From NCBI RefSeq assembly GCF_002975205.1, contig NZ_PCOC01000001.1:2470001-2534000 (forward strand): 64,000 nt of DNA, given 5' to 3'. Below the pieces are notes generated by a model that saw only the letters and a list, made by a program, of their open reading frames with translations, did not search any database and was not told where the DNA came from. Positions 30,257 through 39,562 of the stretch are shown one piece after another; positions within the stretch are counted from its first letter, which is position 1; each line of letters opens with the position of its first letter. The DNA comes from Ochrobactrum vermis (lineage in GTDB: Bacteria; Pseudomonadota; Alphaproteobacteria; Rhizobiales; Rhizobiaceae). The translations under genes were made by a program, and so were the position numbers.

Positions 30257-30341
30257 GCGGGTGTGGTGGAACTGGTAGACGCGCCGGACTCAAAATCCGG
30301 TTCCGAAAGGAGTGTCGGTTCGATTCCGACCACCCGCACCA
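30257..30341 (+). tRNA. tRNA-Leu (anticodon CAA)
   Basis: An 85-base tRNA with acceptor stem GCGGGTG/CACCCGC, encoded CCA end, anticodon stem CCGGA/TCCGG around CTCAAAA (anticodon CAA, reads UUG), a long class II variable arm (TTCCGAAAGGAGT) and T-arm GTCGGTTCGATTCCGAC. The variable arm is right for leucine. No integrase or second attachment-like copy lies nearby. Confidence 0.97.
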
Positions 30342-35124: not shown

Positions 35125-36054
35125 TCAAAGCGCTTTTTGCAATTCAGGAAGAATTGTAAAGAGATCACCGACGAGGCCATAATCTGCCACCTGGAAGATC
35201 GGCGCTTCTTCGTCCTTGTTGATGGCGACGATGACGCGTGAGTCCTTCATGCCCGCCAGATGCTGGATCGCACCGGAGATACCGACGGCGATGTAGAGAT
35301 CCGGTGCAACCACCTTGCCCGTCTGGCCGACCTGCCAGTCGTTCGGCGCATAGCCCGCGTCGACAGCTGCACGGCTGGCGCCGACCGCCGCACCGAGTTT
35401 GTCTGCAACCGGCAGGATCACTTCCTGGAACTTTTCAGCCGAACCAAGCGCACGACCACCCGAGATGATGATCTTGGCCGAGGTCAGTTCTGGACGGTCC
35501 GAATCCGAGAGCGCGTTGCCCACGAAGCTCGACAGCGCCGGATCGACCGCTGCATTGACGCTTTCAACTGCAGCCGAACCACCGACACCCGTTGCCTGGA
35601 AAGAGGCGGTGCGGACCGTGATCACCTTCTTGGCGTCGGTGGATTGTACCGTCTGGATCGCATTGCCCGCATAGATCGGACGCTTGAACGTATCCGCCGA
35701 CACAACTTCCATGATTTCGGACAACTGCATCACATCGAGAAGGGCTGCAACGCGCGGCAGGATGTTCTTGGCCGAGGTGGTCGCCGGCGCAATGATCGTG
35801 TCGTAGTTGGCTGCCAGTTCCACAATGAGAGCTGCCGTCGGCTCGGCCAGACGGTTTTCCAGCGCATCGCTTTCAGCCAGCAGAACCTTGCGTATGCCCT
35901 TAAGCTTGGAGGCGGCATCAGCAGCAGCCTTCGCACCCTTGCCTGCAACCAGAACATCCACGTCGCCGCCGATCTGGGCAGCTGCCGTCAGCGCCTTGGC
36001 CGTCTGGTCCGAAAGGGTTGCATTGTCGTGTTCGGCAATAAGAAGAATAGCCAT
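35125..36054 (-). CDS. etfA: Electron transfer flavoprotein alpha subunit
   Basis: A 309-residue FAD-binding subunit that carries electrons from acyl-CoA dehydrogenases to ETF:ubiquinone oxidoreductase. The C-terminal FAD domain shows [35 protein letters not shown] and [24 protein letters not shown] precedes the ATG. Forms a heterodimer with the product of etfB just upstream. Confidence 0.97.
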
Positions 36055-36077
36055 TTATTTCGTCCCTTCCGATTTCT

Positions 36078-36824
36078 TTAGAGTACGCCGTCGGCCTTGA
36101 GCTTCTCGACCAGTTCAGAGACTGAACCGACCTTTACGCCAGCCTTGCGTCCACCTGGCTCTTCGGTCTTCAGGACCTTGAGGCGCGGCGCAATGTCGGC
36201 GCCGAAATCGGCAGGCGACTTTTCGTCGAGCGGCTTCTTCTTGGCTTTCATGATGTTCGGCAGCGATGCGTAGCGCGGCTGGTTCAGGCGCAGATCGACC
36301 GTAACGATGGCCGGGAGCTTCACGTCGATGGTCTGGAGACCGCCGTCAACTTCGCGCGTCACCTTGGCCGAACCGTCGCCCAGTTCCACCTTCGAGGCAA
36401 AAGTTGCCTGGCTCCAGTTGAGGAGCGCCGACAGCATCTGGCCGGTCTGATTCGAATCGTCGTCGATGGCCTGCTTGCCGAGGAAGACGAGGTCCGGCTT
36501 TTCCGCATCGACCACGCCCTTCAGCACCTTGGCAACACCGAGCGGCTCAACCGTTTCATCGCTCTTCACAAGGATCGCGCGATCGGCGCCCATGGCGAGC
36601 GCCGTGCGCAGCGTTTCCTGTGCCTGAGCCGGACCGACCGAAACCGCAACGATTTCCGTCACCTTGCCCGCTTCCTTCAGTCGGATCGCTTCTTCAACTG
36701 CGATCTCGTCGAACGGATTCATCGACATCTTGACGTTCGCAAGCTCAACGCCCGAACCGTCTCCCTTTACACGGATCTTAACGTTGTAATCGACAACCCG
36801 TTTCACTGCGACAAGGACTTTCAT
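36078..36824 (-). CDS. etfB: Electron transfer flavoprotein beta subunit
   Basis: A 248-residue partner of EtfA that holds structural AMP. It starts [20 protein letters not shown] and has the family signature region around [20 protein letters not shown] and [25 protein letters not shown] precedes the ATG. First gene of the etfBA pair; a perfect palindrome lies about 160 bases upstream. Confidence 0.97.
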
Positions 36825-37134
36825 CCGCGATTACCTCTTCAATAACTCTTGCAGCAGGACTATGCCGCCGTGAACTCCCACCCGCATGTCAAAATCCGAC
36901 ATGAAAGCGGCACCGGCGCAACTTGGGTTATGGCGCAAATGCGCTGCCTATCCGCCGGGAACCGGCACGAAACCTAAAGACGGTTGACGTGCACGTCAAT
37001 CAGGCTTGGGCCGCTATATCGATTAAAATCAATTTATCTTGACAAGAGGTCATTCCGAAACTGCGCAACCCGGCGCCCCCTGTTTTCATGTCGTTTACAA
37101 GCCACACGCCATGCTTTAGGTAACGCCTCGTAAT
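36825..37134. other. Divergent promoter region of etfBA and queCDE
   Basis: About 310 bases with no gene. It contains the TTGACGTGCACGTCAA palindrome, then an AT-rich stretch (37017-37045) with TTGACA-like and TATAT-like blocks that could serve queC, then about 90 bases of queC leader. Confidence 0.5.
36984..36999 (-). promoter_or_regulatory. Perfect 16-bp palindrome upstream of etfB
   Basis: TTGACGTGCACGTCAA. Form and target recall operators of MerR-type LiuR regulators of branched-chain amino acid and fatty-acid breakdown genes, including etfBA, described by comparative genomics. Assignment is tentative. Confidence 0.55.
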
Positions 37135-37164
37135 CCGGTCGCAGCCTACCCGGTCAAAACAAGG
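37135..37164 (+). ncRNA. PreQ1-I riboswitch covering the queC ribosome-binding site
   Basis: Stem strands CCGG (37135-37138) and CCGG (37149-37153 region) flank the loop TCGCAGCCTAC, and the 3' tail is CAAAACAAGG. The blocks GGTCGCAG, ACC and CAAAACAAGG match, in order and spacing, the minimal type II preQ1-I aptamer known from Thermoanaerobacter tengcongensis. The final AAGG is part of the AAGGAA ribosome-binding site 9 bases before the queC ATG, so ligand binding would block translation. Gene context (preQ1 synthesis) agrees. Confidence 0.88.
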
Positions 37165-37175
37165 AACCCTGACTT

Positions 37176-37874
37176 ATGAAAACGCTCGTCGTCTGCTCCG
37201 GTGGACTCGATTCCGTTTCGCTTGCTTACAGAATAGCAGCCGAACACCAACTCACCGCCCTCCTCTCCTTCGACTATGGCCAGCGCCACAAGAAGGAACT
37301 GGATTCGGCCAAAGCCTGTGCCGAAAGGCTGGGCGTTCCTCATCAGATCATCGACATTCGCCCGATCGGTGCCAGCCTGACCGGCTCGGCACTGACCGAC
37401 GACGTCGATGTTCCCGACGGACACTATGCCGAAGAAACGATGAAGGTCACCGTCGTTCCGAACCGCAATGCAATCATGCTGGCGATCGCATTCGGCGTAG
37501 CGGCTGCGCAAAAAGCGGACGCCGTGGCACTTGCCGTGCATGGCGGCGATCACTTCATCTATCCTGACTGTCGCCCCGGCTTTATCGATGCTTTCCAGAC
37601 CATGCAGAACCATGCGCTGGACGGTTATGCGGACATAAAGCTGCTCGCCCCCTATGTGCACGCGTCGAAAGCCGACATCGTTATCGACGGCGCAAAATAT
37701 CGCACACCCTTCGCGGCGACATGGTCCTGCTACAAGGGTGGGGAACATCATTGCGGACGCTGTGGCACCTGCGTCGAGCGACGCGAAGCTTTTCATCTCG
37801 CCGGTATTGAAGACCCGACGGTCTATGAGGATGCCGATTTCTGGCGCTCGGCAATCGAGAAGAGGAGCGCCTGA
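37176..37874 (+). CDS. queC: 7-cyano-7-deazaguanine synthase QueC
   Basis: Converts 7-carboxy-7-deazaguanine to preQ0 with ATP and ammonia, on the way to queuosine in tRNA. A 232-residue protein with the PP-loop SGGLDSVSLAY at the N-terminus and a C-terminal zinc site C-x8-C-x2-C-x2-C (CYKGGEHHCGRCGTCVE). First gene of queC-queD-queE; its stop overlaps the queD start (TGATG). Likely controlled at translation by the preQ1-I riboswitch just upstream. Confidence 0.98.
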   Translation: MKTLVVCSGGLDSVSLAYRIAAEHQLTALLSFDYGQRHKKELDSAKACAERLGVPHQIIDIRPIGASLTGSALTDDVDVPDGHYAEETMKVTVVPNRNAIMLAIAFGVAAAQKADAVALAVHGGDHFIYPDCRPGFIDAFQTMQNHALDGYADIKLLAPYVHASKADIVIDGAKYRTPFAATWSCYKGGEHHCGRCGTCVERREAFHLAGIEDPTVYEDADFWRSAIEKRSA

Positions 37875-38230
37875 TGTTTCGCATCACCAAGGAGTTTCAC
37901 TTCTCCGCGTCACACCAATTGACCGGACTACCCGCCGATCATCAATGCGCGCGGCTGCACGGCCACAACTATATTGTCGAGGTCGAGCTTTCGGCTCCCG
38001 ATCTCGACCAGCACGGTTTTGTCCGTGATTATCACGAACTGGCGCCGTTCAAGCACTATATCGATGATTGCTTTGACCATCGTCATCTCAACGATGTTCT
38101 GGGCCACAACCAGAGCACGGCTGAAACGCTTGCCCTGCATTTCTTCGAATGGTGTCATACGCGGTGGCCTGAAATTTCCGCCGTGCGGGTCAGCGAAACG
38201 CCCAAGACATGGGCCGAGTACAGACCATGA
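37874..38230 (+). CDS. queD: 6-carboxy-5,6,7,8-tetrahydropterin synthase QueD
   Basis: Turns dihydroneopterin triphosphate into 6-carboxytetrahydropterin. A 118-residue PTPS-fold protein: zinc ligands His in FHFSASHQL and in [12 protein letters not shown], and the catalytic Cys in [10 protein letters not shown]. Both ends overlap neighbours (TGATG with queC, ATGA with queE), so the three proteins are translated as a coupled unit. Confidence 0.97.
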
Positions 38231-38970
38231 CATCGGAACAGAAACCGGTGCGAGACATCCGCATCGCAGAGATTTTCGGTCCGACGATACAGGGCGAAGG
38301 TGTACTCATCGGTGAGCCGACGGTTTTCGTGCGAACCGGCGGCTGCGATTATCGCTGTACCTGGTGCGACAGCCTCCATGCCGTCGAAAGCCGCTTCCGC
38401 CATGATTGGCAAGCGATGAGCGTGGAGGCGATTTGGGATGAAGTGACGGCACTTTCCCGAAGAAAGCCGCTAACGGTGTCACTTTCTGGCGGCAATCCGG
38501 CCATTCAGCCGCTGGGACCATTGATTGAACGCGGCAAGGCCGAGGATTATCGCTTTGCACTGGAAACCCAGGGGTCGGTTGCGCAGGACTGGTTTTCCGC
38601 ACTCGACACGCTGGTGCTTAGCCCCAAGCCCCCCTCAAGCGCCATGAAGACAGATTTCGATGCGCTCACCGCATGTGTTGAAGCGGCCGGACCGAAGCCG
38701 CGAACGGTGCTGAAATTCGTCATCTTCGATGATGCCGATTACGCCTTTGCCAAAGAGGTGGCCAGTCGACATCCGCGATTGCCGGTCTATCTCCAGCCCG
38801 GCAATCATACGCCGCCGCCGCCTGAAGCACATGATGCCGCAATCGATATCGACGGTATCATGCGGCGGATGGAATGGCTGGTGGAAAAGGTGACTACGGA
38901 TGGCTGGTACGATGCACGCGTCCTGCCCCAGCTTCACGTGTTGATCTGGGGCAACAGACGCGGTGTCTAA
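38227..38970 (+). CDS. queE: 7-carboxy-7-deazaguanine synthase QueE (radical SAM)
   Basis: Contracts the pterin ring of carboxytetrahydropterin to carboxydeazaguanine. A 247-residue radical SAM enzyme with the 4Fe-4S motif C-x3-C-x2-C ([12 protein letters not shown]) and [20 protein letters not shown] typical of QueE. The start overlaps the queD stop as ATGA; an open frame six codons further up is not needed. A single base separates its stop from the stop of the convergent pduO gene. Confidence 0.97.
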
Positions 38971-38971
38971 A

Positions 38972-39562
38972 CTAGCGATTTGCGCCAGGCACCCAGAGAA
39001 TATCCTGCGCACCATTATCGTTGACAGTTCGCGATGCCACGAACAGGAAATCGGAAAGGCGGTTGATATATTGCAGGGCTTCCGCCGAAACGACCTCTCC
39101 TTCAACACGGGCAAGCGCAACCATCAGCCGCTCCGCCCGGCGTGAGACAGTGCGGGCGAGGTGCAATGCAGCCGATGCCGCCGAACCGCCGGGAAGAATG
39201 AATGAGCGGAGCGGCTGCAGATCAGCATTGAGGAGATCGATATCGGCTTCCACGCGCGAAACCTGCGACGCGACGATGCGCAGCGGTTCGTAGGCGAGCG
39301 GCTTGCCATCATCCGGCGTCGACAGATCGGCACCAAGATCGAAAAGATCATTCTGGATACGTGCCAGCATGGCATCAATCTGTGCATGGGCATTCTCTTC
39401 ACCGCCGGTATGAATGCGAGCCATGCCGATGCAGGCATTGGCTTCATCCACCGTGCCATAGGCTTCGACACGCAGGTCCGACTTCAGCCGACGTGGCCCG
39501 CTGGCAAGCCCGGTCGTGCCCTTGTCGCCAGTGCGGGTATAGATCTTGTTGAGCTTGACCAT
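38972..39562 (-). CDS. Cob(I)yrinic acid a,c-diamide / cobalamin adenosyltransferase, PduO type
   Basis: Adenosylates cobalamin to the coenzyme form. A 196-residue five-helix-bundle enzyme with the ATP motif YTRTGDKGTTGLASG at the N-terminus, VDEANACIGMAR, and the late signature SRRAERLMVALAR. It follows the HIG1 gene by 2 bases, so both are in one transcript. No cobalamin riboswitch is seen upstream. Confidence 0.95.
   Translation of the reverse strand: MVKLNKIYTRTGDKGTTGLASGPRRLKSDLRVEAYGTVDEANACIGMARIHTGGEENAHAQIDAMLARIQNDLFDLGADLSTPDDGKPLAYEPLRIVASQVSRVEADIDLLNADLQPLRSFILPGGSAASAALHLARTVSRRAERLMVALARVEGEVVSAEALQYINRLSDFLFVASRTVNDNGAQDILWVPGANR

What the first reader, a model, noticed from the sequence alone, without database searches (positions are those of the whole stretch)
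37135..37175. PreQ1-I riboswitch overlapping the queC ribosome-binding site in an alphaproteobacterium
Directly seen: CCGG, TCGCAG, ACC, CCGG and CAAAACAAGG occur in the order and spacing of the minimal type II preQ1-I aptamer whose structure is known from Thermoanaerobacter tengcongensis. The last AAGG is the queC ribosome-binding site. Established: this class controls queuosine genes. Inference: it acts on translation of the coupled queC-queD-queE unit. The aptamer is best known from Firmicutes, so its presence here is notable.
Basis: partly seen in the sequence, partly recalled or inferred. Interest (0 to 1): 0.72.

Follow-up and report, generated by a model that had tools for sequence, protein, structure and literature searches.

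The report
PreQ1 riboswitch controlling queC translation
A 30-letter RNA switch sits on the ribosome-binding site of the first gene for making the tRNA base queuosine and very probably turns the gene down when the precursor preQ1 builds up; it belongs to a known kind, but the standard RNA database model did not recognise this version, which is found in many alphaproteobacteria.

Summary
Window 37135-37164 reads CCGG-TCGCAG-CCTAC-CCGG-TC-AAAAC-AAGG, 11 nt before the queC ATG. Best explanation: a class I type II preQ1 riboswitch (confidence 0.9; ligand binding untested). Rfam RF00522 scores it only 12.8 bits (cut-off 39), but at its cut-off it also misses all 18 motif-bearing loci I gave it, Firmicutes queT/yhhQ leaders included, so the failure is probably the model's.

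Evidence: (1) 20 of 25 orthologue-like queC leaders found by protein search carry it. (2) In 82 distinct aptamers P1 pairs 3 and 4 always pair, with four pair types each. (3) A fifth P1 pair forms in 51 of 54 long-L3 but 7 of 27 short-L3 aptamers. (4) The next gene is queC, queD, queF, queT or yhhQ in 210 of 220 contexts. (5) A second copy in this genome precedes queF. (6) A fixed-spacing promoter lies just upstream.

The window's form is compact (4-bp P1, 6-nt L3). In relatives where queC is missing at this place, the switch precedes a 10-34-codon micro-ORF ending at the queD start. New member of a known kind, with two new details.

The parts
37094..37122 (+). inferred promoter: -35 TTTACA (37094-37099), 17-nt spacer, -10 TAGGTA (37117-37122); expected start about 37129, i.e. 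about 6 nt before the aptamer
   Evidence: TTNAC-N18-TA found in 81 of 204 queC/queD/queF aptamer upstreams, against 0-5 for each of 17 other spacings; a generic promoter scan found nothing
37135..37138 (+). P1, 5' strand (CCGG)
   Evidence: covariation of P1 pairs 3 and 4
37139..37144 (+). L1 and P2 5' strand (UCGCAG; anti-Shine-Dalgarno)
   Evidence: residue roles from PMC11625349 section 4
37145..37149 (+). L2 (CCUAC), ending in the AC that marks type II; C37149 is the predicted ligand-reading base
37150..37153 (+). P1, 3' strand (CCGG)
37154..37159 (+). L3 (UCAAAA), short form
37160..37164 (+). P2 3' strand CAAGG, of which AAGG is the queC Shine-Dalgarno; 11 nt to the ATG
   Evidence: 6-11 nt in 178 of 179 queC contexts, 13 in one
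37176..37874 (+). queC
   Evidence: TIGR00364, 181.7 bits over cut-off 150.3
37874..38230 (+). queD; its ATG overlaps the queC stop (TGATG)
   Evidence: TIGR03367, 90.3 bits against cut-off 89.25
38227..38970 (+). queE; ATG at 38227 overlaps the queD stop (ATGA); an upstream ATG at 38209 also exists
   Evidence: TIGR03365, 382.9 bits over cut-off 206.1

Best explanation
A class I type II preQ1 riboswitch of translational type. When preQ1 is scarce the AAGG at 37161-37164 is free and the ribosome starts queC; queD and queE follow because their starts overlap the preceding stops. Shown here: sequence, P1 covariation, P1/L3 length coupling, gene context, spacing, stop-start overlaps, and a promoter-like element at fixed spacing just 5' of the aptamer. 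Inferred: P2, ligand identity, direction of the switch, the transcription start, and translational coupling itself.
For: Sequence and chance controls. Orthologue-like leaders: 20 of 25. Genus: the 6 same-genus genomes listed each have two matches, one before queC and one before queF. P1: pairs 1-4 canonical in 82 of 82 distinct aptamers; pair 3 is CG 78, AT 2, GC 1, TA 1; pair 4 is CG 74, GC 6, GT 1, AT 1. Pair 5 canonical in 59 of 82 (shuffled 37.0, sd 3.7): 51 of 54 with long L3, 7 of 27 with short L3 (the insertion form L019 is the one left out of that split). Next gene in 220 contexts: queC 179, queF 18, queD 8, queT 3, yhhQ 1, plus L194, a queD on inspection. AAGG-to-start 6-11 nt in 178 of 179 queC contexts, which leaves no room for a terminator before queC; none found at 36900-37300. 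tgt and queA present in the genome. Type II marker AC before the P1 3' strand.
Against: RF00522: 12.8 bits against 39. P2 hardly varies, so it has no covariation support of its own; constancy of GGTCGCAG, ACCC and AAAACAAGG in L040-L157 and L196-L201 is by construction, since those letters were in the search pattern, and the model R1 was built from such sequences. MFE folding gives P1 but no special stability (z +1.2; the method cannot model pseudoknots). 5 of 25 high-scoring queC leaders lack the motif. No ligand-binding or expression data.
Confidence: 0.9

Rival explanations
1. The aptamer is a preQ1 sensor but acts mainly on transcription (pausing or Rho-dependent termination when queC is untranslated), not directly by hiding the Shine-Dalgarno.
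For: The B. subtilis type II member acts on transcription (PMC11625349 section 9 part 1). 14 of 18 queF contexts have the aptamer 53-94 nt upstream of the gene, with foldable sequence between.
Against: Before queC only 6-11 nt separate AAGG and the start in 178 of 179 contexts, and no terminator-like site lies at 36900-37300. Detached aptamers before queD keep a Shine-Dalgarno 7-9 nt before a micro-ORF start in 8 of 9 contexts.
Confidence: 0.06
2. The RNA binds preQ0 or another pathway intermediate as its true ligand.
For: QueC makes preQ0, and the Tte type II aptamer prefers preQ1 over preQ0 only 17-fold (PMC11625349, passages).
Against: It also precedes queF, which consumes preQ0 to make preQ1; feedback on queF fits preQ1 better. 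The predicted contact bases are those described for type II.
Confidence: 0.05
3. A conserved leader element that is not a riboswitch, such as a protein-binding site or a translation enhancer around the Shine-Dalgarno.
For: The loop letters are nearly invariant (in part by construction) and the element ends in the Shine-Dalgarno.
Against: Compensatory P1 changes and coupling of P1 length to L3 length; the same element before queT and yhhQ in Firmicutes.
Confidence: 0.02

Closest known systems
Class I type II preQ1 riboswitch, Thermoanaerobacter tengcongensis (Tte), translational
   Same: H-type pseudoknot layout; AC before the P1 3' strand; L1/P2 letters UCGCAG and tail CAAAACAAGG (Tte letters recalled, not fetched); Shine-Dalgarno in the P2 3' strand
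   Different: Window form has a 4-bp P1 with U.U where Tte has its fifth pair, an L3 three nt shorter and an L2 one nt longer (Tte side recalled); 30 nt against a Tte wild-type 33-mer (PMC10622847, passages). Precedes queC; the review links Tte-like SDS burial with queT
Class I type II preQ1 riboswitch, Bacillus subtilis queC
   Same: Subtype and gene
   Different: Acts on transcription through a terminator (PMC11625349); no terminator-like site found here
Class I type III preQ1 riboswitch, E. coli yhhQ
   Same: Small size, AAGG in P2, AC at the specificity base
   Different: Type III has a short pyrimidine-rich loop and a UU flank; not seen here
B12 riboswitch of Mycobacterium tuberculosis ppe2 with a translated uORF
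   Same: Riboswitch-controlled short ORF passes translation to the gene by termination-reinitiation (PMC11260477, outline and abstract seen): like the micro-ORF-queD arrangement in relatives
   Different: Different aptamer and ligand; the window itself has queC, not a micro-ORF

Membership tests
Class I type II preQ1 riboswitch (structural definition) | P1 stem of an H-type pseudoknot | tested here: met
   Pairs 1-4 canonical in 82 of 82 distinct aptamers, four pair types each at pairs 3 and 4; pairs 1 and 2 were imposed by the search pattern for most loci
Class I type II preQ1 riboswitch (structural definition) | AC immediately before the P1 3' strand | tested here: met
   A37148 C37149; criterion from PMC11625349 section 4
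Class I type II preQ1 riboswitch (structural definition) | A-rich L3 whose length fits P1 | tested here: met
   Pair 5 present in 51 of 54 long-L3 and 7 of 27 short-L3 aptamers
Class I type II preQ1 riboswitch (structural definition) | P2 pseudoknot between UCGCAG and CAAGG | tested here: inconclusive
   Nearly invariant, so no covariation; part of the invariance was imposed by the search pattern
Class I type II preQ1 riboswitch (structural definition) | Located before queuosine or preQ1-uptake genes | tested here: met
   queC 179, queF 18, queD 8, queT 3, yhhQ 1 of 220 contexts; 1 filed under queE is queD on inspection; 10 unassigned
Class I type II preQ1 riboswitch (structural definition) | Binds preQ1 | not testable with these tools
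   Needs in-line probing or calorimetry
Rfam RF00522 (the database model) | Score at or above the gathering cut-off of 39 bits | tested here: not met
   12.8 bits. Control: 0 of 18 motif loci reach it, so I treat this as a limit of the model, and file the element by structure, not under the Rfam model
Class I type I preQ1 riboswitch | UC before the P1 3' strand | tested here: not met
   AC instead; criterion
Class I type III preQ1 riboswitch | Short pyrimidine-rich hairpin loop with UU beside the P1 5' strand | tested here: not met
   UCGCAGCCUAC; criterion

The most novel reading that the evidence does not exclude
Alphaproteobacteria hold a coherent compact form of the type II preQ1 riboswitch that the Rfam model does not see. 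It sits at the very 5' end of the mRNA, and its output is handed on by stop-start overlaps through queC to queD and queE. Where queC has left this place, a 10-34-codon micro-ORF of unrelated sequence takes over its start distance and often its one-base overlap with queD, so the riboswitch controls queD through a relay ORF.
Probability: 0.6. Interest if true: 0.6.

Novelty: new member of a known kind. Interest (0 to 1): 0.45.

Why it matters
Surveys that rely on RF00522 probably undercount this riboswitch. [quoted passage not shown] it lists RF00522 and studied 15 Rhizobiales and 15 Rhodobacterales genomes (PMC3766115, passages). Another, Rfam-based, marks Brucella abortus for the glycine but not the preQ1 riboswitch (PMC9495176 Table 1, passages), while the 6 same-genus genomes listed have two aptamers each (whether that species is among them is unknown). 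Adding these sequences to a type II model would mend the count. The natural 4-bp/short-L3 and 5-bp/longer-L3 forms are a ready-made series for testing how P1 and L3 set affinity, and the micro-ORF relay makes translational coupling behind a riboswitch testable.

Tried and rejected
Chance match: rejected. Rfam absence as refutation: rejected after the control. Transcription terminator before queC: none found and no room. Generic sigma-70 scan of the leader: nothing; the promoter appeared only by comparing upstreams. Viral origin: 6 IMG/VR stretches match the pattern; L198 and L200 are queC leaders like those of bacteria, L196 is queT-like, L197, L199 and L201 look like chance in coding DNA; not pursued. 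A first own-genome pattern search returned nothing because my minimum gap was too long. A conserved leader peptide before queF: rejected; starts and stops are not conserved there; a hairpin looks more regular by eye, but I ran no control on it. Matches I judged chance: L031, L195, L197, L199, L201, L233, L234, L275, L276, L278, L286, L287.

Rows dropped before counts: contexts without an assigned gene (except L048 and L095) and three unparsed ones (L068, L186, L277) were left out, then 209 contexts were collapsed to 82 distinct aptamers; L019 (43 extra nt) was left out of the L3 split. L065, L102 and L155 among the 10 unassigned contexts are spurious second places in loci whose true aptamer is counted elsewhere. 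L274 is a decayed copy without AAAACAAGG and entered no count. L281-L285 were fetched after and are not among the 82. L270 was left out of the chance estimate.

Full report
What is there. Window 37135-37164 is CCGG TCGCAG CCTAC CCGG TC AAAAC AAGG, followed by 11 nt and the queC ATG at 37176. queC, queD and queE pass their NCBIfam cut-offs, queD only just (90.3 against 89.25 bits). The queC stop overlaps the queD start (TGATG at 37872-37876) and the queD stop overlaps a queE start (ATGA at 38227-38230). The exact gapped pattern occurs once in the window and never in 100 shuffles.

Rfam. No preQ1 family reaches its gathering score in the window, and RF00522 does not in the whole genome. With permissive settings the only match in 36960-37260 is RF00522 at 12.8 bits (cut-off 39, E 4.8), in register with P1 and the A-rich tail. 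As a control I gave the gathering search 18 loci that carry the motif (of 118), among them Moorella (yhhQ), Caldicoprobacter (queT) and gammaproteobacterial ones: 0 of 18 reached the RF00522 cut-off; the one hit in that call was a cobalamin riboswitch. The model seems to miss this group.

Orthologous leaders. A queC protein search over 121 genomes of the family gave matches in 38; the 25 matches with E below 1e-90 are orthologue-like. 20 of these 25 leaders carry the motif, one of them (L019) with about 40 extra nt in L3 that fold into a hairpin; L015, L017, L022, L023 and L025 do not. This is the least biased count, because the loci were picked by protein. A covariance model of 21 aptamers found matches in 24 of 121 and, in a larger draw, 81 of 327 genomes of the family; three of the 81 rest on matches I judge to be chance (L275, L276, L278). 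The 6 same-genus genomes listed have two matches each, one before queC and one before queF. Class-wide: 10 of 385 genomes, one (L195) probably chance. Family f107: 2 of 14. Family f25: 12 of 149, one of which rests only on a doubtful match (L233). Family f69: 8 of 75 at E up to 0.1, of which two (L286, L287) are chance on inspection.

The organism. Contig G016:C1 has the same length (468,945) as the Brucella daejeonensis contig found (L113; list), and G016 is of the same genus as the window. I therefore infer genus Brucella in the broad sense that includes Ochrobactrum. Species not determined.

Structure. From 220 unique contexts, 209 parsed and collapsed to 82 distinct aptamers. P1 pairs 1 and 2 were imposed by the search pattern for most loci and say nothing. 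Pairs 3 and 4 were free: both are canonical in 82 of 82, with four pair types each (shuffled expectation 75.2 and 67.5). Pair 5 is canonical in 59 of 82 (shuffled 37.0, sd 3.7); pairs 6 and 7 are at the shuffled level. When at most 2 nt lie between the fourth P1 pair and AAAAC, pair 5 forms in 7 of 27; when 3-19 nt lie there, in 51 of 54 (Fisher p 2.4e-10; the sequences are related, so p is only a guide). Longer stem, longer crossing loop: what an H-type pseudoknot needs. The window is of the short kind, 30 nt in all, the minimum seen (24 of 82). For scale, PMC10622847 (passages) gives wild-type lengths of 33 (Tte) and 36 (E. coli) and a 30-nt engineered E. coli construct. PMC9495176 gives a range of 25-45 nt for the class (passages), so I do not claim a record. 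L1 is TCGCAG in 80 of 82 and the tail AAAACAAGG in 81 of 82, but those letters were in the pattern for L040-L157 and L196-L201. P2 thus rests on the known structure, not on covariation here.

Context. The next gene is queC in 179 of 220, queF 18, queD 8, queT 3, yhhQ 1, one filed under queE that is queD on inspection, 10 unassigned. AAGG to queC start is 6-11 nt in 178 of 179, 13 in one. The own genome's second aptamer precedes queF (C1:1545364-1545391), and tgt and queA are present, so the tested parts of the pathway that makes and uses preQ1 are there.

Promoter. TTNAC-N18-TA (a -35 with 17-nt spacer to a -10) occurs 34-62 nt upstream of the aptamer in 81 of 204 contexts; 17 other spacings give 0-5 each. 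The contexts are related, so the count is not of independent cases. In the window it is TTTACA 37094-37099 and TAGGTA 37117-37122. The expected start is about 37129, so the aptamer begins about 7 nt into the mRNA. The start site is inferred.

Mechanism. With the Shine-Dalgarno inside P2 and no room for a terminator before queC, the switch most likely acts on translation initiation, as in Tte (PMC11625349 section 9 part 1). Relatives give a natural hint of coupling. In 9 contexts the aptamer is far from queD. In 8 of these a micro-ORF starts 7-9 nt after the Shine-Dalgarno and ends within 10 nt of the queD start, in 5 with exactly the one-base overlap seen at the window's queC-queD junction (L107, L175, L180, L194, L255; in L180 another in-frame ATG lies 6 nt further up). 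The ninth (L270) looks by eye like a decayed queC. In f69, all 6 real matches (L194, L281-L285) have a micro-ORF of exactly 10 codons and the TGATG junction, though the peptides differ. In random linkers the chance per locus of ending within 12 nt is 0.025-0.24; the product, 4.6e-9, overstates the case because L185 and L269 share a genus and the set was noticed before the test. Before queF, 3 of 18 contexts (L165, L220, L222) abut the gene, 14 lie 53-94 nt upstream and one (L186) is undetermined; there is no conserved ORF there, which does not support a general relay. How those act is open.

Known or new. The review PMC11625349 (section 4) counts 521 type II sequences and includes Pseudomonadota, so some of these may be in McCown 2014, which is not held. 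My literature searches, judged from their listings, showed no paper on an alphaproteobacterial type II preQ1 riboswitch or a preQ1-controlled micro-ORF; the library is limited and the list was cut at 20. The B12 riboswitch of ppe2 is a precedent for a riboswitch-controlled uORF with reinitiation (PMC11260477, outline and abstract). Hence: new member of a known kind, with a compact geometry and a relay ORF in relatives as the new details.

Noticed in passing
L034 1499-1610 (own genome C1, about 1545363-1545474): Second preQ1 aptamer in the same genome before queF, with 56 nt between AAGG and the queF ATG, a small hairpin and a possible 9-codon ORF in between. By eye the hairpin is kept in the genus with changed letters, the ORF is not.
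   Followed up: partly
L194, L281-L285 (family f69): Variant aptamer with TCG(C/T)AG and tail AAAACAGGAG, followed by a 10-codon micro-ORF ending TGATG at queD in all six.
   Followed up: partly
L019 and L181 (same site): Aptamer with about 40 nt inserted into L3, able to form a hairpin, upstream of an intact-looking queC.
   Followed up: partly
L277: queC leader in which the P1/L3 region seems expanded into several CCGG-containing repeats, probably no longer a working aptamer.
   Followed up: no
L270: Aptamer followed by what looks like a decayed queC before queD, in a genome (G590) that has an aptamer and a full queC elsewhere (L218).
   Followed up: no
L026-L030 against L001-L025: Two queC lineages in the family: the window's CSGGLDS type and a distant type at 24-36% identity in these five loci; none of the five carries the motif.
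   Followed up: no
L015, L017: Both sampled genomes of one genus (g10) with a close queC lack the aptamer.
   Followed up: no
window 30257-30338: A tRNA gene, the only Rfam match over its gathering score in the window.
   Followed up: no
window 35125-36824 (-) and 38972-39562 (-): Electron-transfer-flavoprotein-like genes divergent from queC (matches below the curated cut-offs), and a PduO-type cobalamin adenosyltransferase gene facing queE.
   Followed up: no
L081 7371-7574 (-): Cobalamin riboswitch, 134 bits, in the same stored stretch as a queF preQ1 aptamer.
   Followed up: no
L198, L200 (IMG/VR contigs): Aptamer plus queC on contigs filed as viral; they may be host DNA or prophage flanks.
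   Followed up: no
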